Positions 7,470 to 36,778 of a stretch of DNA of 44,620 nt are shown one piece after another. Both the position numbers and the translations under genes were made by a program. Location of the stretch: positions 275,247 through 319,866 of the forward strand of contig NW_003200738.1 of the NCBI RefSeq assembly GCF_000006405.1, given 5' to 3'. This DNA comes from Perkinsus marinus ATCC 50983 (lineage: Eukaryota; Perkinsozoa; Perkinsida; Perkinsidae). The number at the start of each line of letters is the position of its first letter. Positions within the stretch are counted from its first letter, which is position 1. Below the pieces are notes generated by a model that was given only the letters and a program-made list of their open reading frames with translations, did no database searches and was not told where the DNA came from.

Positions 7470-8596
7470 ATCTATTTAGGGCGGCCGAATAGGGGAGGGG
7501 CCGCTATGCCCCCCGCTATGGACTATACCATTCAGAGATCTATTTAGGGCGGCCGAATAGGGGAGGGGCCGCTATGCCCCCCGCTATGGACTATACCATT
7601 CAGAGATCTATTTAGGGCGGCCGAATAGGGGAGGGGCCGCTATGCCCCCCCCGCTATGGACTATACCATTCAGAGATCTATTTAGGGCGGCCGAATAGGG
7701 GAGGGGCCGCTATGCCCCCCGCTATGGACTATACCATTCAGAGATCTATTAGGGCGAATAGGGGAGGGGCCGCTATGCCCTCCGCTATGGACTATACCAT
7801 TCAGAGATCTATTTAGGGCGGCCGAATAGGGGAGGGGCCGCTATGCCACCCGCTATGGACTATACCATTCAGAGATCTATTTAGGGCGGCCGAATAGGGG
7901 AGGGGCCGCTATGCCCCCCGCTATGGACTATACCATTCAGAGATCTATTCAGGGCGGCCGAATAGGGGAGGGGCCGCTATGCCACCCGCTATGGACTATA
8001 CCATTCAGAGATCTATTTAGGGAGGCCGAATAGGGGAGGGGCCGCTATGCCCCCCGCTATGGACCATACCATTCAGAGATCTATTTAGGGCGGCCGAATA
8101 GGGGAGGGGCCGCTATGCCCCCCGCTATGGACTATACCATTCAGAGATCTATTTAGGGCGGCCGAATAGGGGAGGGGCCGCTATGCCCCCCGCTATGGAC
8201 TATACCATTCAGAGATCTATTTAAGGCGGCCGAATAGGGGAGGGGCCGCTATGCCCCCCGCTATGGACTATACCATTCAGAGATCTATTTAAGGCGGCCG
8301 AATAGGGGAGGGGCCGCTATGCCCCCCGCTATGGACTATACCATTCAGAGATCTATTTAGGGCGGCCGAATAGGGGAGGGGCCGCTATGCCCCCCGCTAT
8401 GGACTATACCATTCAGAGATCTATTTAGGGCGGCCGAATAGGGGAGGGGCCGCTATGCCCCCCGCTATGGACTATACCATTCAGAGATCTATTTAGGGCG
8501 GCCGAATAGGGGAGGGGCCGCTATGCCCCCCGCTATGGACTATACCATTCAGAGATCTATTTAGGGCCGCCGAATAGGGGAGGGGCCGCTATGCCC
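7470..8596. repeat. 68-bp tandem array, about 16.6 copies
   Basis: Head-to-tail units beginning ATCTATTTAGGGCGGCCGAA and containing GGGGAGGGGCCGCTATGCCC and GGACTATACCATTCAGAG. Units are nearly identical, with scattered single-base variants and one shortened unit near 7745-7810. The unit contains GC-rich pieces that can pair with one another (GGCGGCC and GGCCGC) and a quasi-palindrome ATGGACTATACCAT. Its GC content is much higher than the flanks. There is no open frame across it. Confidence 0.95.
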
Positions 8597-12216: not shown

Positions 12217-13662
12217 CTAGGAAGAGTAATAATCTATGACACCTTGCACCGAGGCGTAGGTCCCCAATACGAATGCGATGGTACCAACGACTATCAATAC
12301 GTAACATACGATGTGCTCAACATCAAAGGTAAGAAGCGGCTTCTTGGAGATCTTCAATATAAAGGCAGCCGGTGAATAAAATGTGACAATCGAACCGGTC
12401 AAAGAGCCAACCAGACCCAACATAACATTAACATCGGGTAATGCAATAGCCACAGCATAGGATAAACCAATTATGAGTACCACTACTATCCAACCGTATA
12501 CCTTCTTCCACCATGCATTCCTAGGTGGCAAGCATGCCGATATAGCATGAACGATAGAACTCCTCTGAGGATAGACCACCAATGGGAATGCACCAATAAT
12601 GGTGATACACTCCAAAGCAAAGGAAATACATATCATGACATCGCCTTGAGATATGTACTGTCCTAAGTTGATGATGATAGAGGACTGTACATCCATACCA
12701 AATGCCAAGAAGTTAGTAATACCAACAGTAACATAGACGGCAAAGCACACTGCGATCGTCCATACTACTACTGGCATAAACCGCTTGGTCGTAGGGTCGC
12801 GGACCTGGATGTAGATCTCTGGGACGTTAGGTTGATTACAATAAGCAAACGTATAGGTATTGATAGCCGCCAGCATGCTAGTCCAACCATTCACTGGAGA
12901 GACCATATCTGATGGTAGATGATCTGATACGCCGTAACGGCATAGAACGTAGATAGATGTTATAGCCAGAAAGAAAACACCGAGTACACCGAGAAATGTG
13001 ACATAACGAATCTCGCTAATGTGACTTCTCAAAGAGAGAGGAAGCAAGATAACAATAGCGATAACAGCAGTAAAGGGAATGCGGTGTACCCAGATCTTGA
13101 GGAACCAGTTGGTGGGGTCAGGCCCAATGAAATGGACAAGGACCGGATATAGGATATCGAACAACGTGATTAGGTAAGTAACACAAGTGCCAAAACAGAA
13201 AAGTATCATAACAACGTCAAAGCCATAGCACACACCTTTGCCAAAGAGATGCTCTAACAATTCTTCATAGGAAGGCTTCCCTGTTATGTAACAGGCCTTG
13301 GCGATCATTATAATAGACAAGAGTGATAATACACCCATCACGAACAACAACAGTATTCCACCTACTATACCTGCATCTAATATCGAAATAGGAACAGCCA
13401 AGGCTCCTGCTCCCAAAGTAGCCGCCGAAAGATTGAATACAGCACTAAACCGTCCATCAGGTGCCAGAAGGTTCAACTGCGACATCCGAGCGAAGAAAGA
13501 TTTCTTCACGATGGGCTTAGCATCAATCACAGAATTGGAAGCTCCCTTAAGATCATCATCCGCCATCGCCATTGGACTTTCAGAGAAGTCGGCCGTTTCG
13601 GCGCCGCTACTAGAATCACGACCCTCCGTGGGTCCGTCGGCAGCAGCCGGTGAGGCAGCCAT
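12217..13662 (-). CDS. Amino-acid permease, AAAP/SLC38 family
   Basis: A single uninterrupted 481-codon frame. A hydrophilic Ser/Asp-rich N-terminus of about 60 residues is followed by the family entry motif at residues 71-90 (GRFSAVFNLSAATLGAGALA) and about eleven membrane segments. A second landmark is the TM6 region with NTYTFAYCNQPNVPEIY. Length and topology match SLC38 and AVT vacuolar or plasma-membrane transporters, which move neutral amino acids with Na+ or H+. The start at 13660-13662 (MAASPAAADGP) precedes the family core by a normal distance. Unlike the other long resolved genes here it has no intron, which could mean origin by retroposition. The substrate cannot be read from sequence. 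Confidence 0.93.
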   Translation of the reverse strand: MAASPAAADGPTEGRDSSSGAETADFSESPMAMADDDLKGASNSVIDAKPIVKKSFFARMSQLNLLAPDGRFSAVFNLSAATLGAGALAVPISILDAGIVGGILLLFVMGVLSLLSIIMIAKACYITGKPSYEELLEHLFGKGVCYGFDVVMILFCFGTCVTYLITLFDILYPVLVHFIGPDPTNWFLKIWVHRIPFTAVIAIVILLPLSLRSHISEIRYVTFLGVLGVFFLAITSIYVLCRYGVSDHLPSDMVSPVNGWTSMLAAINTYTFAYCNQPNVPEIYIQVRDPTTKRFMPVVVWTIAVCFAVYVTVGITNFLAFGMDVQSSIIINLGQYISQGDVMICISFALECITIIGAFPLVVYPQRSSIVHAISACLPPRNAWWKKVYGWIVVVLIIGLSYAVAIALPDVNVMLGLVGSLTGSIVTFYSPAAFILKISKKPLLTFDVEHIVCYVLIVVGTIAFVLGTYASVQGVIDYYSS

Positions 13663-14998
13663 GGTGCGTTTGGCAATGAACTATCAATAACAGAGTTCCC
13701 TATCCTCAGTGAGAGCATAACCACTACTCAGATATCGGTGATCATTCACACCTAAACGAATTAAGACGCTAAACGAGGGTCGCATATGGCGACATTCGGA
13801 TCCGCAGAGGATGAAAGGAATTCATCTCCAAGACCACAGAGAATAGCAAAGATTCCAAGCATTCAAGTCTCTCCGTGTGACTTATATCCCAGGCATACCC
13901 AATCCCCCTACCCTGTGCTGTGTTGAATCCATTTTTACCAACACTTCTAAAAAGAATAGAGTTGCCTCACGATCACATGAAAACAGTCGCACATCTTCCC
14001 AGGTCTCACCCTTCCACTTACTAGGGTCCAAGTTCCCGAAATAGGATCATGCCATGCGGACTGAGGTTCCTTTTTCTGCCAGCTGCAAGCACAGTTACTT
14101 ATCGGATATCGCATTGAGCGCGCGCCAGTTCGATCGATATGAACAATGCGGGGGCCGGTGCTTTGGTGGCCCCGAAAACTTCTCGCGCGCCCCGAATAAT
14201 ACTCTAAATCCCCGAAAACCACTAGAATTTCCCCGAATGAACTTTATTGTCCCCAATTAAATATTGATAGAGTGTTCTCGCTCATGATGGGTATGAATCG
14301 GCTAGATGCAAACAGTTATTTATTTATGAACAACGAGGGGTTCGCTGGCCTCTGAAATGTTCATAACGATATGTGTTTGGACTATTCAGGATCCTATGAT
14401 TGCACTGGAAGTTTCATGTTGCTGATGCTAGGATGCATTCCCCACGATCTCAAGTATTACGTATAAACCCAGTTTACGTAGGATTCACGCGGATTACTCA
14501 ACATGGCGCTTCCCGGAAACATCCGGGGTCCGGCCGCAGCCGCCTCAGTTTCATGCAAAGTGCTCGAGATGCCCACCAGAGTCCCATCAAGGTATCGAGT
14601 TTCAAGACGACTTCATGCGTGGCTGATACCTGATTTCCGCGAGACCGTTCTTTGATACTTGCTTCATCGCGTCTAGCCTTGACTGCTGATGTATCCCTGT
14701 CAAATCTATTACATGGCCAACTATACTCGTAGAAACGAACGAGTGGTCTTGTGACTAGCAGTACTGCTACCTCAACCAATGGGCTTGTGGTTAGCACTGC
14801 TACTGCCGCAGCTAGTGCCACTTTGACTAGGATTACTACTGAGTCCGGTAGTGATTCTGAGGTTAGCGTGACTACTGCCCGAACTAGTGGTAAACTACCA
14901 TTGGTAGTCTACTCCATTACATCGTATTTTCAGATCACAGAGAAGGGTAATAGTGAGACACGGGTCACGGTATAACTTTCACCATCCTCGGTACTATC
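13663..14998. other. Gene-poor region
   Basis: No recognised gene. A plus-strand frame at 14751-14975 is Ser/Thr-rich and built from degenerate ACTGCTACTGCC-type repetition, so it is probably not a gene. Small palindromes occur, for example ACTACCA/TGGTAGT at 14894-14908. Confidence 0.4.
14165..14255. repeat. Irregular CCCCGAA repeats
   Basis: The heptamer CCCCGAA occurs four times within about 80 bp (near 14170, 14190, 14210 and 14230), with a fifth related CCCC run just after, at spacings of about 20-25 bp. The spacing is too irregular for telomeric repeat. The function is unknown. Confidence 0.4.
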
Positions 14999-15125
14999 AT
15001 TGGAGTTTCACCCGTGATGTGAAAAACACTAGTGAAAAACACATCTCACATTTCACTTCGCGAAAAATGCATATGAGCAGTGAGTGCCGCGTAAAGCATG
15101 TGATGTGTTTTTGATGTGATACGTA
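14999..15125. mobile_element. MITE-like element, diverged or one-ended copy
   Basis: The left end ATTGGAGTTTCACCC plus the CACTAGTGAAAAACAC interior matches the MITE family, and the CACTTCGCG block is present. The usual right terminal repeat is missing. It is probably an old or truncated member. Confidence 0.55.
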
Positions 15126-16076
15126 AAACGAAAGATTTGTCTCGCCGACGGTTTGCGACTTCGCCCATGTTCCCACATGAGAGATGAAAATTTGTTTTGA
15201 CATTGAGCCTTCGAAATAGTTGATTGATCAACACAGAGCTACGTCAATAGGTCAATTAATCCGATGCTCAGACCAGCCATGCTTAAAGACATAGTTCTCA
15301 ATTAATCAAACTGCAATAGCGTTTAGCGCATACAGCTCGTTGAGCGATCGGTCGAGATTGTGTGGAAGACTGTCCTGAGAAGATACAGCGATCGGACTCC
15401 GATAATCATAGTTGGGCTATGTTATGAGCCACGCCAGACATCTCACGTAGAATTAATTGGCAACTTCACTGCTCCCGGCTCCGTCAAAATAGGTTCGACT
15501 GCCATCCCGACTGAATGCATTGTAATCAAAGCGCTTCCGACGTCTTAGCTTCATAGTCGCAATCGGTTGGGACTCCACTGCCAGGTCTCCCTAAGTAATG
15601 GTGATTCAAGGGAGTGCATGATTACACAAGAGCGCCACTCTCAGAGCGGTCGTTCCGACCGGGAATGTTCCAACCGGGTCGGAACATTCCCGTGAACGGT
15701 GTGTTTCAGAAGAGACAGTAGTACATGCCGTGAGGATACTAGTGACTCTAGTACTAAGTGTTGGAAGAACTAATTCTCTCCGACGCCTCCCCTCCCTGAA
15801 ATATCGTCACCTACATTAGCTCCAACCTCACTGGGAGGACAGCAGGAACCGTTGGCTTGGAGCAGTGTAGGGCCTATGAGGAACATATCAACTTTGTAGT
15901 CTCCACAGGAGACATACCGGCATCGGGATACGCTTCTCCACCAAGCATTGTGCTTCTACGCTTCTCGATGTTGGGAGGGGCTGAACCAGTCTGGTTCAAC
16001 CAGAGACCGAAAACGAGCTCAGCGTTTTTGAACAGTTGGTGGCACACTAAGATATCGGAGAGTGCTTACGAGTGAA
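15126..16076. other. Gene-poor region with a strong hairpin
   Basis: No recognised gene. A hairpin at 15660-15692 has a 12-bp perfect stem (CGGGAATGTTCC with its complement) and a 9-nt loop. Other short palindromic words lie near 15745-15765 (ACTAG and CTAGT). Plus-strand frames here lack recognisable features. Confidence 0.45.
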
Positions 16077-16681
16077 TTACCTTGGGCAATGCATCCGAGA
16101 GGTTCGAGAACGTGATATCGTTGAGTGTATCTGCACTCTGCTGAGTATTGTGTATCTGATCAAAATGCATTTATGGTTTTCAGTTTTTTTTCTGTACCAC
16201 TCCTGAATGGAATGGCATTCAGCGAAGAACGTCTTGAGGAGTTCAAGGAGGGGGACCGAAGACACCATCCGGTTCCCGTGGGGCGCTCACATGTAAGTCT
16301 TCGTTGTCCAACTCCTCGCTGCCACGACCGAATTTCGCGTGCTTGCTTCTTTTCATCTGCTTATACCGGGGTTGTGGATTGTTCCGCGTCCTTTTCGGTA
16401 CCGAAGGTATGACCATTCCGGCTTGTTCCTTATCCAATGAAACTGTCACTTGCGGAGAGCACAGTTCGTTGACTCACTGTTTCTGTTCCCAGTATTCCTG
16501 TTTTCGGCGATCCTCCGGTGTCGGTAGCCGTGGGGTTCCTGTGGATTGATGAAGGGATAGAATCTTCGCTCATTTCATCTGCATCAAAATGAGCCAAAAT
16601 ATCAGGTGGAGTGAGTGTCAATTCAGGCTTGGCACGCCTGAATAGCGAAATGGTAGAGCTCTGGATACTCACGCTCTTCAA
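16077..16681 (-). CDS. Hypothetical open frames beside the transposase
   Basis: Three overlapping minus-strand open frames (16430-16681, 16243-16449, 16077-16268) have protein-like, strongly basic composition, for example IPSVPKRTRNNPQPRYKQMK. They follow the MULE transposase on the same strand. MULE transposases often carry a basic C-terminal tail after the SWIM finger, so these may be 3' exons of that element or a second element-borne gene. I could not find an intron that joins them in frame. Confidence 0.3.
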
Positions 16682-17129
16682 ATTGAGGATTCGGGGGGAC
16701 CGGTGGACGTGACCGAGGGGTTGGGGGTGTGCCGAACGAAGAATCTGAGGGAGGAGAGAACTAGGAGATACAAAATAAGCCTAGATTGGGTCTCAATTCG
16801 GGCTGAAACTCGGTCACACACCAGGGCTTTGAACTATGTCAGATGATTGCTTCAGCCTGGTATGGCCGCAAAATTGTGGTAACATAGTCAAACGGGCAAC
16901 TTACTGGCTAGCTGGGACCCCAGGAGGGCATTCGTATACACTACCCTGGCATTCTCTGGTAATCGAAGGGTTGTGGGACGGTCCCGAATTCGTCGGTCAT
17001 GTAGATTTCCTCGAGCTCTCAGCGCGTAGACGGGATCAATCTCCAATGCTCTCACTTTACTGTGCCTGAATCGAACAGGAGGTATGTGCAGTCGGGTATA
17101 GTAAATACAAGGAGGCAGATGACGGTTGA

Positions 17130-19191
17130 TTACCGTGGTCGCCCGGTTGGCCTTGGACCGTAAGTAACCAGATCATCCCACTCGAAGTTCTCCACAGAAA
17201 GTCCTTCCAAAAATCGCACAGCAGCGCTATGCTCACAAGGTGGGAAGCGGCCGTTATAACAAGTACAGGAATAGTTCTCTCGATCTACGATGTGAGCATT
17301 CTGGGAAATAGTCTTGAAGTCATCGTAGTCGCGCCAAGGCAGGCTTGGCAACCCTAGGACTCTTCTAGCATACTGCTCTATAGCAAAATCCAAGGTCTCT
17401 TGATCACCAGCGGCATGTGCTAGCCTATCTGTTGCGATGATGTACATTTTAGCGTTATCGTCGGTGTAGATGCCTTTAATCTCGGTCCCGTTGTCCACTC
17501 TTGCGTATTTCTCGGCCCATTTAGCCCCCGCCGTTGCCCGACGCCGCACAAGCTGTGCATCTTGATCGGACGCCTCTGCTGCAATCGTCGTCGAATCCTC
17601 CACGTACCCGATCATCTCCCCTATGAGCGCGGGGACGGTGGCAGATTTTGCTATTTTACCTGAGGAACTGGTAGGTGATTCGTTGGTACAAAGGTTCACT
17701 AACCTCTTTTCAGCCCGCTGTTGATGCCTTCAATGGCACACGAATGACGTGGTGTTCCGCTCTCCACACCTCTGCAAGACTGCCCCCAAGTGGCCCTTTC
17801 GAGGAGCCAACCATTTTTGAAGGTTGTCATAAAATCTGGATACATATCGTTCCACTTGGCGACTAGTAAGGAGGCTGCTGATGCAAACTGTTCGTCATTC
17901 GGTGCCTGCTGTAGTGCAACCAGGTCGGATTTGAACTCGGCTCGTCTCTGCTCCACAGCGCTCGCACTGATCTCAGTGGATTCATTGATAGCCTTCCGAG
18001 ATGCTTGTAACACTCTGCGTTCCATATGTACCCAGCAGTATAACCTAACTCTCGACGACCGGACCGTCGGATCACCGGATTCTACTGGCCAGGTGAGTTC
18101 AGGGGTAAGTTTGTCTGGTCGGACGCTCCCGAATACCTGAGACATCACATTTCGTCAACATTCATCATTTTATTTGCAAATGACTGGAAGACTGTACCAC
18201 AATACGATGATGATAATGACTGGTAGACTGTATCACAATACGATGATGATAATCGCTGGTAGACTGTATCACAATACGACGATGATAATGGCTGGTAGAC
18301 TGTATCACAATACGATGATGATAATGGCTGGTAGACTGTACCACAATACGATGATGATAATGACTGGTAGACTGTATCACAATACGATGATGATAATCGC
18401 TGGTAGACTGTATCACAATACGATGATGATAATGGCTGGTAGACTGTATCACAATACGATGATGATAATGGCTGGTAGACTGTATCACAATACGATGATG
18501 ATAATCGCTGGTAGACTGTATCACAATACGATGATGATAATGGCTGGTAGACTGTATCACAATACGATGATGATAATGACTGGTAGACTGTATCACAATA
18601 CGATGATGATAATCGCTGGTAGACTGTATCACAATACGATGATGATAATCGCTGGTAGACTGTATCACAATACGATGATGATAATGGCTGGTAGACTGTA
18701 TCACAATACGATGATGATAATGGCTGGTAGACTGTATCACAACACGATGATGATAATGGCTGGTAGACTGTACCACAATACGATGATGGTAATGGCTGGT
18801 AGACTGTATCACAATACGATGATGATAATGGCTGGTAGACTGTATCACAACACGATGATGATAATGGCTGGTAGACTGTATCACAATACGATGATGATAA
18901 TGGCTGGTAGACTGTATCACAATACGATGATGATAATGGCTGGTAGACTGTATCACAATACGATGATGGTAATGGCTGGTAGACTGTATCATAGTTACGA
19001 CAACACGACGGCTAATGGCCGTAGCATCTTACGCTGCTGAAGCCAGTTGTGATTTGCTCTGCCCCATCAGCGACCAGCGTTCGTGGCGAATGTTCGAGGT
19101 CGATCCCCTTGCATCGAGCTACTCGGCGGCATTCATCCCGAACTGCTCCCATAATGCTGCTCACGGTAGATCCAGATTCGTTTGTCGTCAC
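17130..19191 (-). CDS. MULE transposase with SWIM zinc finger (5' end lost or unresolved)
   Basis: Mutator-like transposase on the minus strand. Exons are about 19033-19191, 17704-18136 and 17130-17659. The first carries PRTLVADGAEQITTGFSS, the MULE-type Asp-containing strand. The second carries VRLYCWVHMERRV, FKNGWLLERATWG and SCAIEGINSGLKRG, the family CxxH and Asn/Gly-rich core. The third carries the SWIM finger as CTCYNGRFPPCEH (CxCx7CxH). The 3' intron is 44 nt (17660-17703). The 5' intron (18137-19032, 896 nt) has a GTAAGA donor and a GTCTCAG acceptor, joins codons in phase 0, and is almost entirely the 36-bp satellite. Upstream, an in-frame stop and then a 100-N gap prevent following the N-terminus. 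It may be a decayed element. Function: binds transposon ends and cuts and joins DNA. Confidence 0.75.
18181..18991. repeat. 36-bp satellite, about 22-23 copies, inside the transposase intron
   Basis: Units are 36 bp (CTGTATCACAATACGATGAT, then GAT AAT GGC TGG TAG A), varying at a few positions (ATGACT, ATCGCT or ATGGCT versions). Because 36 is a multiple of 3 and no stop arises, one frame stays open on each strand for over 270 codons (plus: GRLYHNTMMIMA; minus: IQSTSHYHHRIV). These ORFs are a by-product of the repeat, not credible genes. The whole array lies inside the intron 18137-19032. Confidence 0.95.
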
Positions 19192-19299
19192 CTCATCTGA
19201 GAATCATCCACTACGATGGTGGCACCATCGTAGGGTCTTCCCGTGCTATCGCGGTGTTGTACACGGTGTGTACGAAATCAAACACACCAGAGGAGAAGC
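19191..19299. repeat. 108-bp duplicated segment, copy 1
   Basis: About 108 bp is nearly identical to 21990-22097. It starts CCTCATCTGAGAATCATCCA and ends ACCAGAGGAGAAG. On the minus strand copy 2 reads an open frame (FVHTVYYTATAREEP, then IIVVDDSQM), while copy 1 is frameshifted. It carries the hairpin CTACGATGGTG/CACCATCGTAG at 19211-19233. It directly abuts the transposase 5' exon and runs into the gap. Confidence 0.7.
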
Positions 19300-19399
19300 N
19301 NNNNNNNNNNNNNNNNNNNNNNNNNNNNNNNNNNNNNNNNNNNNNNNNNNNNNNNNNNNNNNNNNNNNNNNNNNNNNNNNNNNNNNNNNNNNNNNNNNN
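19300..19399. other. Assembly gap, 100 N
   Basis: Exactly 100 undetermined bases, the conventional size for a gap of unknown length. The transposase 5' side and the retroelement integrase end on opposite sides of it, so their adjacency is not proven. Confidence 0.99.
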
Positions 19400-19401
19400 C
19401 C

Positions 19402-19971
19402 CTATTAGAACGTCAACACTCTGGTCTCAAGAAGTCATGAAAGGCCCTCTGTGCTGAACATCCTGAATCGTGGCCAGCCTATGTCACGAAAGCTCAGCGG
19501 AGGATCAACACCCGATCTACATATGGCTACAGTCCTCAAGAGCTATTCTACGGTTTCGATGCTCTAACGCCCTTCTCAAGACGGTTTGAAGACGTCAGCA
19601 ACACTATCGACGAAGACTCTGTCCGTTTCGAGGCTCGACGTCGTGATCGGGAACGACAGAGAATGGTCAACAGCACTCTCAACGTAATGGAGAAGATGCG
19701 TGCTGATGCTCTCTCGCGTATCAATCCATCAACCTACACTCGACAAGTCGCACGACGACGTCTATTCAAGGTTGGTGACTCCGTGATGAAGTGGGTCCGT
19801 AACGTCGACCCCCTTACTCCTTCATGGAGAGGCCCTCTACTGGTTCAACAAGTACTTGGCGATTCTACTTACAAGCTTTCCGACGGCACTGTTCAAGATT
19901 CCAGAAATATACGGAAGTACTTCGGTAAAGCCCAGAATATGAATCCCATTACTATTGCATATATTCAGTAG
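19402..19971 (+). pseudogene. LTR-retroelement integrase C-terminal part, interrupted
   Basis: The plus-strand frame reads LLERQHSGLKKS, then an in-frame TGA (19438-19440), then KALCAEHPESW, YGYSPQELFYGFDALTPFS and a basic C-terminal domain (ARRRLFKVGDSVMKW, SWRGPLLVQQVLGDSTYKL) to a stop at 19969-19971. The ALCAEHPESW, YGYSPQELFYGF and DxVMKW series is the pattern of Ty3/Gypsy-class integrases: end of the catalytic core, then the chromatin/SH3-like tail. The catalytic region is missing or in the gap. The internal stop indicates an inactive copy. Confidence 0.75.
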
Positions 19972-20006
19972 ATTTAATTCACTTTTGATATTTGTGCCAA
20001 TCTTAC

Positions 20007-20018
20007 GGGGAGGAGAGA
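20007..20018 (+). other. Candidate polypurine tract and start of a 3' LTR
   Basis: A purine run GGGGAGGAGAGA about 36 bp after the integrase stop is immediately followed by TG (20019), as expected for a retroelement polypurine tract next to a 3' LTR. No matching 5' LTR is in the window, so the LTR cannot be confirmed. Confidence 0.35.
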
Positions 20019-20986
20019 TGATAAGAGTCTATAGCCATTCAGTCTTATGGCGTGCGCTCCCTGTAGCGTAAAGCTCGCTCTCGCCCGACCGTTTCAAATA
20101 TTGTCCGTTCAAACCATTGTTCGGATCCCGTGGATCTATCTGATCTGTCTGCACTCAATCTCCACTAACTATTGAATCCTTATGTCCGGTTCTGCATCGA
20201 GTTCTAGTCCTCCGGAAGCCTTCGACCAGCACTTCCTTAACACAATGCGGCTCCCTTGTCTCAGGACCCTTGGTTCACGGTAGCGATGACTCTATCGGGA
20301 GCACAACTTCTTATCGGATAGTAGTATGTCCCAGCTATCTCTAGGGGCAAACAAAGAAAAAATAAAAAAGATGATAGAGGAGGAGGGGAGAGAGAGGGAG
20401 GGAGGGAGAGGGATAGAACAGGATGCGAACGAAACAAAAAAGATGTATGAGACCGCAGTCTGCCTACCGGAGGGATGACGAAATGTTCTCTTTGTGTCGT
20501 GTAGGGATCGCGCAGGGTCGAGTCATTGTTTGTACCGCAGGTCGACACCACTTCGCGACAACAACCATCATTGCTCGGTCTTGGGAAATCGAGCTTTACG
20601 CTCGGTTTTTCACATTGCCTCGATCATCCGTACTCAAATATCACTAGACAAGGATGTGATATGTAGACGGTATCAAAGAAAACATACATTCATTCCTGTT
20701 CCTTCCGTTTGCCTCCTGCTAGCACTCGCGCTTCCTTCGGACTGGTTCGCTCACGAACTTTTTCAGTTCCGTTCTGCGGCCGAAAGAGAGCACCAAATGT
20801 CGGTACTCAGAATCGTTCGCGTCACAAACCTTGTGACAGAAGGAGCGTTCATCGCGAATTAACCATGCCTCATATGATCTCCGGCACTCAGATCATCTAT
20901 GACCGGGCCTGAACACATCTATTTATGGACTCCTTAGGAGACCCTCTGTGGCCAGGGATATTCGATGAACGACACAATGGCTTCAT
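20019..20986. other. Retroelement flank, no gene recognised
   Basis: Probably LTR and flanking DNA. It contains a long purine tract (20341-20412: AGAAAAAATAAAAAAGATGA, then GGAGGAGGGGAGAGAGAGGG-type sequence). Open frames at 20423-20912 have no recognisable features. Confidence 0.35.
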
Positions 20987-21352
20987 TTAAGAGGCTCCAA
21001 AGAACTCTCTATATGAGTAAGTCAACTGCTCCTTTCTCGGGACCTCCACCACCAGTGCGTGCGCCAACAGGTTTTTTTCCAGCACAGTCTCTGGGAATTT
21101 TCCCCGATATATCTTCGCCATTTCCAACCGTTTAAGCAATGTCGGTAAGACTTCGCTGCTGCAGGAATCCAATGAGATTTCGAAATATGAGAACACTCCA
21201 ACCAGTCTCTTCTTCGTCGCTACATCCGTGTACAGGTCAAAGCTGATGTGATGACAAGCACTGGAGTTGGTTACATTGGCCGGCTTCTTGCATACCCGGG
21301 CAGCATGCCATTGCTCGTGGCCTGCGAGTGATTTGCAAGATTCCGTGGTCAA
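20987..21352 (-). CDS. Hypothetical protein fragment, 121 codons
   Basis: An open minus-strand frame with protein-like composition (RLVGVFSYFEISLDSCSSEV, then TLLKRLEMAKIYRGKFPE). No domain is recognised. An overlapping frame at 21237-21464 could supply an upstream exon. It lies between decayed transposons and may belong to one. Nothing indicates its function. Confidence 0.35.
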   Translation of the reverse strand: MTTESCKSLAGHEQWHAARVCKKPANVTNSSACHHISFDLYTDVATKKRLVGVFSYFEISLDSCSSEVLPTLLKRLEMAKIYRGKFPETVLEKNLLAHALVVEVPRKEQLTYSYREFFGAS

Positions 21353-21439
21353 CTTCTGAGATCGGAGCTCTCACCTGATCTCGCGAAAGAACTACACTTT
21401 CGGAAGCCTGATAGCCATTTCTCCGCCGTAGAGCAATGG

Positions 21440-21831
21440 CCCGTCCTAAATTAGGACGGGACAATTAGGACTCCTAATTGTCACAAAATCTTGCACATTA
21501 CATTTAATTTCATCAATGAGTTGAAGCGTATCATCTCTAGAAGAGAGAAAGAATCTCCTCAGAGTATCAACGGTTGAGCTTTAACCTCGCTTAGCGAGGT
21601 TATAGACGATACTAAAAGACTATTGAAGACTATTAAGGATCGAGACGAAGTGTACTAGCCTAGTACACTTCGTCTCGATCTCACGAGTATCCTCTAGTAC
21701 TCTCACTAGGGCGTTGCTCTGTGAGTAGAACTCATACACGGTAGTATCACTGAGCCATGGATTCAACACATTCTCACCAACATATTTGATAACACTAGCA
21801 GGCGACTAGCACTAACTTAGTGCCACTAAGT
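21440..21831. repeat. Hairpin island A: clustered near-perfect palindromes
   Basis: Hairpins follow each other closely: 21440-21460 (CCCGTCCTAA/TTAGGACGGG), 21460-21482 (GACAATTAGGA/TCCTAATTGTC), 21583-21601 (AACCTCGCT/AGCGAGGTT), 21638-21680 (a perfect 21-bp inverted repeat starting GATCGAGACGAAG), and 21815-21831 (ACTTAGTG/CACTAAGT). Each has a single spacer base, so loops of about 1 nt recur. No coding frame covers them. Confidence 0.85.
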
Positions 21832-21989
21832 ACGATGGAATCTTTATCATGGAAAAGATTCTAATGCCTCCCGCGGTAGTTCAACAGAGACGACAGGATA
21901 TGACGTTCACTACCCGCAATCGGTGGGCGACGTCGTGGAAGAGCATCGGGGAGTTAAGACACAGAATCAAAATCTTGATTCCGGTCGTA

Positions 21990-22097
21990 CCTCATCTGAG
22001 AATCATCCACCACGATGATCACCATCGTAGGCTCTTCCCGTGCTGTGGCGGTGTAGTACACGGTGTGTACGAAACCAAACGCACCAGAGGAGAAGGA
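21990..22097. repeat. 108-bp duplicated segment, copy 2
   Basis: Near-identical partner of 19191-19299. Here the minus strand is open (21954-22145) and reads FVHTVYYTATAREEP and VVDDSQMRYD. A GT donor-like GTACGA follows QMR. It is probably a fragment of the same transposon family as the 17-19 kb element. Confidence 0.65.
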
Positions 22098-36320: not shown

Positions 36321-36778
36321 CTTCCTTGACTTTTGTACTTCTTCCTTGACTTTTGTACTTCTTCCTTGACTTTTATACATCTTCCTTGGCTTTTATACTT
36401 CTTCCTTGACTTTTATACATCTTCCTTGACTTTTGTACATCTTCCTAGACTTTTGTACTTCTTCCTTGACTTTTGTACTTCTTCCTTGACTTTTGTACTT
36501 CTTCCTTGACTTTTGTACTTCTTCCTTGACTTCTGTACTTCTTCCTTGACTTTTATACATCTTCCTTGACTTTTCTACATCGTCCTTGACTTTTGTACTT
36601 CTTCCTTGACTTTTGTACTTCTTCCTTGACTTTTGTACTTCTTCCTTGACTTTTGTACTTCTTCCTTGACTTTTGTACTTCTTCCTTGACTTTTGTACTT
36701 CTTCCTTGACTTCTGTACTTCTTCCTTGACTTTTATACATCTTCCTTGACTTTTGTACTTCTTCCTTGACTTTTGTAG
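36321..36778. repeat. 20-bp tandem array, about 23 copies, with 180-bp higher-order period
   Basis: The unit is CTTCCTTGACTTTTGTACTT, with variants ending TATACAT. A distinctive pair (CTGTACTT unit followed by a TATACAT unit) occurs at 36521 and again at 36701, a nine-unit higher-order period. The array is strongly strand-asymmetric (pyrimidine-rich plus strand). The 115-codon minus-strand frame (KSQGRSTKVKEEV repeats) is a by-product of the repeat. It ends 43 bp before the next gene's start codon. Confidence 0.93.

What the first reader, a model, noticed from the sequence alone, without database searches (positions are those of the whole stretch)
17704..19191. A 36-bp satellite fills a functional-looking intron of a MULE transposase
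Seen: the transposase reads ...ITTGFSS on one side and VFGSVRP... on the other, with a GTAAGA donor at 19032 and a GTCTCAG acceptor at 18137 that join in phase 0. Almost all of the 896-nt intron is the 36-bp array, whereas most other resolved introns are 32-93 nt. Inference: either the satellite expanded inside an existing tiny intron, or the intron boundary was recruited around an array. If the element moves, it could carry and spread the satellite, which would link transposition with satellite dispersal.
Basis: partly seen in the sequence, partly recalled or inferred. Interest (0 to 1): 0.75.

Follow-up and report, generated by a model that had tools for sequence, protein, structure and literature searches.

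The report
Private minisatellite in old transposase intron
A jumping-gene-type protein gene in a shellfish-parasite relative has an old, usually tiny intron that swelled with a tandem repeat seen at no other place in the genome assembly, and two relatives swelled at the same intron with other repeats, so the repeat most likely grew in place rather than being spread by the element.

Summary
On the minus strand of a Perkinsus-like genome, a Mutator-like transposase is interrupted by an 896-nt GT-AG, phase-0 intron (18137-19032); a 36-bp array of 22.6 copies fills 813 nt of it. Twelve relatives in the same genome have a GT-AG intron at the same site and phase, 8 of the 12 being 41-67 nt long; another lacks it. 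So the intron is old and the array grew inside it.

Dispersal is not supported. The 36-bp unit was found at this locus only (22 of 22 hits), no near-identical transposase copy was found, and no resolved relative carries this array. Two relatives have their own arrays in this intron, 24/45-bp and 28-bp, each found at its own locus only (21 of 21, 6 of 6 hits); a fourth has a weak AT-rich 12-nt periodicity. The units differ but show some similarity above shuffles, so an inherited seed motif is possible.

This is an intronic minisatellite with repeated, private growth at one intron. A true hotspot is suggestive only. Splicing is inferred; no RNA was examined.

The parts
19033..19185 (-). Exon A: transposase piece with the second catalytic Asp (LVADGAEQITTGFSS); its upstream limit is uncertain (up to about 19191)
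   Evidence: Translation; C285 (L003) matches at E 2.5e-5 and C177 weakly at E 0.02
18137..19032 (-). Intron 1, 896 nt, GTAAGA...TCTCAG, phase 0
   Evidence: same site and phase in 12 relatives
18179..18991 (.). 36-bp tandem array, 22.6 copies, found at this locus only
   Evidence: genome-wide 22 of 22 hits here
17704..18136 (-). Exon B: CWVHMERR motif and third catalytic residue (CAIEGINSGLKR)
   Evidence: 79% identical to a P. olseni protein over a 164-aa stretch that spans exons B and C
17660..17703 (-). Intron 2, 44 nt, GTTAGT...CCTCAG, phase 1
   Evidence: P. olseni protein P0023 contains the same joined sequence (GLKRG-KIAKSAT); its DNA was not seen
17130..17659 (-). Exon C: C-terminal part with CxCx7CxH (SWIM-like) motif and stop codon
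   Evidence: Pfam SWIM only below its cut-off
19184..19298 (.). 115-bp segment abutting exon A, 90% identical to 21984-22095; no other match reported in the genome
19300..19399 (.). Assembly gap (100 N) that hides whatever lies 5' of exon A

Best explanation
This is the C-terminal part of an old, low-copy Mutator-like transposase gene. Its first visible intron is an ancestral intron of that transposase subfamily, just downstream of the second catalytic Asp; in 8 of 12 relatives it is 41-67 nt. In this copy a stretch inside the intron was duplicated and amplified in place (slippage or unequal exchange) to 22.6 copies of 36 bp, while donor, acceptor and frame stayed intact. As intron sequence the array is removed on splicing and is nearly neutral. 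The same intron also filled with other arrays in two other copies. Shown: position, phase, array, single-locus units, conservation of the intron site. Inferred: splicing, the amplification process, near-neutrality, and that the arrays grew separately (a shared seed motif is not excluded).
For: 13 of 20 examined copies (window plus 12 relatives) have a GT-AG intron at the same phase-0 place; 1 lacks it; 1 is ambiguous; 5 unresolved. Lengths: 41, 43, 45, 46, 49, 51, 62, 67, 220, 314, 619, 896, 1080 nt. The window, L003 and L014 arrays have different units, each hit only at its own locus: 22 of 22, 21 of 21, 6 of 6. blastn of all 13 introns, both strands, gives no match at E<=1 between these three. 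Unit variants recur in blocks along the array (order ABCDEBFDDFDBFFDGHDGDDIJ), as slippage or unequal exchange gives. Exons A, B and C are open to a natural stop. 79% identity to a P. olseni protein over 164 aa, against 75% for a transporter between this genome and P. olseni.
Against: No transcript was seen. The intron carries 47 CAG trinucleotides, so decoy acceptors abound. The part 5' of exon A is an assembly gap, so the gene may be a truncated remnant. Array length could be mis-assembled. Against separate origins: unit-to-unit comparison, 6 pairs against 1000 simple shuffles each, uncorrected, gives L003/L014 1, window/L014 8, window/L019 42, window/L003 46 of 1000 as high. The tree forces only two label changes, which could be one gain and one loss. 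In L013 the 51 nt are open and a multiple of 3, so they could be read as coding there.
Confidence: 0.85

Rival explanations
1. The MULE carries the array as cargo and spreads it by transposition, seeding satellites.
For: A transposase and an array are physically linked. Elsewhere a foldback transposon, proposed to be Mutator-like, seeded satellite arrays (Tetris, PMC4079207, passages seen). One 20-nt, 80% inverted pair at 14648 and 20661 brackets the gene; I took it as chance without a test.
Against: Array found at one locus; the 1488-bp region matches only itself; closest relatives in this genome 45-47% identical in protein; the 12 resolved relatives carry other arrays or none.
Confidence: 0.03
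2. The intron is a real hotspot: an inherited seed motif, local sequence, or selection for a long intron in this transposase repeatedly drives tandem amplification.
For: In the 19 loci of this subfamily (63.6 kb) the four arrays counted, L019's weak one included, all lie in this intron. Units differ yet show some similarity above simple shuffles, as a shared seed would. L076 has a 12-nt stretch twice where its near relative L006 has it once.
Against: Against 28 other MULE loci (1 with an array) Fisher p is 0.086 counting 3 arrays and 0.028 counting 4, and this sets 13 introns against 28 loci, not like against like. Exons cannot keep arrays and the loci were centred near this intron, so the contrast is inflated. 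No genome-wide intron survey was possible. Similarity may reflect shared biased composition.
Confidence: 0.25
3. The array is coding, translated as a repeat domain.
For: Period 36 is a multiple of 3; three frames across the array are open.
Against: From exon A the frame stops after 6 codons of intron, and 896 is not a multiple of 3; 8 of the 12 relatives have 41-67 nt there.
Confidence: 0.02
4. It is a dead, unspliced fossil in which the apparent intron is chance.
For: 5' part not found next to exon A or elsewhere in the window by tblastn with relatives' N-terminal pieces; gap and a 115-bp duplicate abut it.
Against: Same-site GT-AG introns in 12 relatives, open exons to the stop, 79% identity to P. 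olseni over 164 aa.
Confidence: 0.1

Closest known systems
Mutator-like (MULE) transposases, Pfam PF10551 group
   Same: Profile-profile match to 6 of the 28 PF10551-scoring places of the same genome (98.0%, E 2.3e-13); D, D, C..H, E and CxCx7CxH layout; best PDB hit a Mutator family transposase, weak at E 0.005
   Different: No sequence of this subfamily that I scanned matches a Pfam MULE model; a conserved intron splits the domain; element ends not found
Satellite-filled gigantic introns of Drosophila genes kl-3 and kl-5 (PMC6508621, abstract and outline seen)
   Same: Tandem repeats occupy most of an intron of a protein gene
   Different: There megabases; here 896 nt, a repeat found at one locus, a transposase gene, no known expression programme
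Tetris foldback transposon and TIR-220 repeats (PMC4079207, passages seen)
   Same: Tandem repeats inside a DNA transposon, proposed there to be of the Mutator superfamily
   Different: There the repeats lie in terminal inverted repeats and seeded longer arrays; here the array is in an intron and seen at one locus
Introner elements of Amoebophrya (PMC7789003, passages seen)
   Same: Repeats inside introns in a related protist group
   Different: Introners are repeated introns with inverted and direct repeats; here one old site with a repeat private to this copy

Membership tests
Mutator-like transposase | RNase-H-type DDE core with C..H between second D and E | tested here: inconclusive
   Second D, C..H and E present in the window; the first D was not found in the window, and is present in 5 relatives. 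Motif meanings recalled.
Mutator-like transposase | Similarity to MULE profile | tested here: met
   hhalign 98.0%, E 2.3e-13, with the window 1 of 6 rows and the match ending just past the intron join; single-sequence Pfam scans gave no MULE match
Mutator-like transposase | Terminal inverted repeats and target duplications of about 9 bp (recalled) | tested here: inconclusive
   3 inverted pairs at 14500-21500, one weak 20-nt pair bracketing the gene; target duplications not looked for; 5' side is an assembly gap
Spliceosomal intron | GT-AG ends, conserved position and phase, frame restored | tested here: met
   13 of 20 copies, with L013 able to read through in frame
Spliceosomal intron | Excision from RNA | not testable with these tools
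   No RNA data at hand
Satellite DNA | Occurs at many loci or as long blocks | tested here: not met
   One locus, 813 nt; better called a minisatellite
Introner element | Homologous introns at many sites | tested here: not met
   Region matched only itself; unit found at one locus

The most novel reading that the evidence does not exclude
One ancestral intron beside the catalytic core of a transposase family is a hotspot that repeatedly grows private minisatellites in different copies, perhaps from an inherited seed motif, and possibly kept because a longer, decoy-rich intron lowers transposase output and so favours survival of element and host.
Probability: 0.1. Interest if true: 0.65.

Novelty: new member of a known kind. 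Interest (0 to 1): 0.4.

Why it matters
The copies give a small natural experiment: one intron, same site and phase, at 41-67 nt in 8 of 12 relatives and at 314-1080 nt in three copies that hold private arrays. That would let the birth of minisatellites be ordered, and asks whether a splicing system used to tiny introns tolerates them. It also warns that a transposon next to a tandem array does not by itself mean satellite dispersal.

Tried and rejected
Dispersal by the element: not supported. Array as coding domain: rejected. Common origin of the arrays: blastn of whole introns finds no match at E<=1 among window, L003 and L014, and one 15-nt match between L014 and L019 at E 0.39 (one search had compared 10 of the 13, one strand). 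Unit-to-unit comparison keeps a shared seed open, so I no longer call the units unrelated. RNA structure bringing splice sites together: the intron folds less stably than its shuffles (-146.9 against mean -192.05 kcal/mol, z +5.69, 20 shuffles), so not supported. Terminal repeats: none convincing. Pfam on transposase pieces: no MULE match. Protein database: the first search returned one protein, 100% identical to the query and marked by the tool as the window's own; the search with the spliced product returned one P. olseni protein. The own genome alone could be searched, so no DNA of another species was compared. Literature: searches; among the papers listed (8 of 31, 12 of 640) I saw no title or abstract start about arrays at this intron or MULEs of Perkinsus. 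That is not proof of absence.

Full report
Setting. The window lies in a 54.46-Mb, 347-contig genome. An amino-acid transporter ORF (12217-13680) is 90% identical to P. chesapeaki, 75% to P. olseni and 74% to P. marinus, so the organism is a Perkinsus or close kin.

The observation. TRF gives one array at 18179-18991, period 36, 22.6 copies, 96% matches. The unit has 22 matches in the window with up to 3 mismatches and none in 100 shuffles. On the minus strand exon A (19185-19033) ends ...LVADGAEQITTGFSS, followed by GTAAGA; the acceptor TGTCTCAG ends at 18137 and exon B begins VFGSVRP. The intron is 896 nt, phase 0, and reading on from exon A stops after 6 codons. A second intron of 44 nt and a third exon follow, giving 371 aa to a natural stop.

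What protein. Pfam scans of the pieces gave no MULE match. Relatives spliced at the same intron show D, D, C..H, E, and three of them and the window show CxCx7CxH or CxCx8CxH further on (motif meaning recalled). An alignment of six (window included) matches an alignment of six of the 28 PF10551-scoring places of the same genome with 98.0% probability, E 2.3e-13. The best PDB match is a Mutator family transposase at E 0.005. I therefore call it Mutator-like. Element ends were not found; one 20-nt, 80% inverted pair at 14648 and 20661 brackets the gene and I took it as chance. The 5' side is an assembly gap.

The intron is old. Searches gave 19 other places of this subfamily (a lower bound; only best candidates are scored). 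Of 20 copies with the window, 13 show a GT-AG intron at the same phase-0 site: 896 (window), 1080 (L003), 49 (L004), 220 (L005), 41 (L006), 67 (L007), 62 (L012), 51 (L013), 314 (L014), 43 (L016), 45 (L017), 619 (L019) and 46 nt (L076). In L013 the 51 nt are also open in frame. One copy (C213, L087) has no intron there and a small frame break. L015 has a donor but no clear acceptor. L008, L009, L010, L011 and L018 were not resolved. Second introns measured in six copies are 44-95 nt; in L003 I could not place it.

The arrays are private. The window unit occurs 22 times genome-wide, all here; the L003 unit 21 of 21 at C285; the L014 unit 6 of 6 at C129. These searches allow 3 mismatches and would miss diverged arrays. 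L019 has only weak AT-rich 12-nt periodicity (TRF scores up to 129 at default settings); L005 has no array.

Separate origins or a shared seed. Whole introns of window, L003 and L014 do not match each other at E<=1. But the units alone do better than most simple shuffles: L003/L014 1, window/L014 8, window/L019 42 and window/L003 46 of 1000 as high; L014/L019 310 and L003/L019 546. This may be shared composition or an inherited seed. On a 13-row tree the array label (4 rows, L019 included) needs 4 changes; well-supported branches force 2, which could be one gain and one loss. Several forks are weak, and the L076 and L011 rows are short.

Hotspot? In 192.5 kb held, 7 arrays (at least 100 nt, 4 copies, period 9) were found, 4 of them in this intron; L076 and L087, run later, have none. 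Against 28 other MULE loci with 1 array, Fisher p is 0.086 (3 of 13) or 0.028 (4 of 13); this sets introns against loci. It is suggestive only, since the loci were chosen around this intron and exons cannot keep arrays.

Mobility. The 1488-bp region matched only itself, and no relative in this genome exceeds 47% protein identity. The P. olseni protein P0023 is 79% identical over 164 aa, contains the exon B-C join, and starts inside exon B. A transporter is 75% identical between this genome and P. olseni, so the exons have probably been under constraint; whether as an element or a domesticated gene is open.

Mechanism. A short duplication inside the intron, then slippage or unequal exchange (inferred). 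Unit variants recur in blocks along the array. In L076 a 12-nt stretch of its 46-nt intron is present twice, once in the 41-nt intron of its near relative L006, which shows what an early step could look like. The array brings many of the intron's 47 CAG trinucleotides, and the RNA folds less stably than shuffles (z +5.69).

Known background. P. marinus introns range from 39 to 1622 bp, the majority under 100 bp (PMC3101222, passages seen). Satellite-filled introns (PMC6508621, abstract and outline), transposons that seed satellites (PMC4079207, passages) and introners (PMC7789003, passages) are known; this matches none in full.

Noticed in passing
19184-19298 and 21984-22095: A 115-bp stretch abutting exon A is 90% identical to a second copy 2.8 kb away, with no other match reported in the genome; both reach TCTCAGATGAGGT.
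   Followed up: partly
L076 and L006: A 12-nt stretch occurs twice in the short intron of L076 and once in that of L006, a possible first step of array growth.
   Followed up: partly
7470-8596 and 36321-36777: Two further arrays in the window, 68-bp x 16.6 and 20-bp x 22.9; gene context not determined.
   Followed up: no
19441-19971 (+): ORF that looks like the C-terminal end of a Ty3-type polyprotein (recalled resemblance; no Pfam match).
   Followed up: no
P0023 (P. olseni): The annotated protein carries an internal repeat after the transposase part.
   Followed up: no
L087 (C213): A copy with the intron missing and a small frame break at the junction, a candidate intron loss.
   Followed up: partly
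Array units of L003, L014 and window: The units resemble each other somewhat more than simple shuffles do; a common seed motif or shared composition is undecided.
   Followed up: partly
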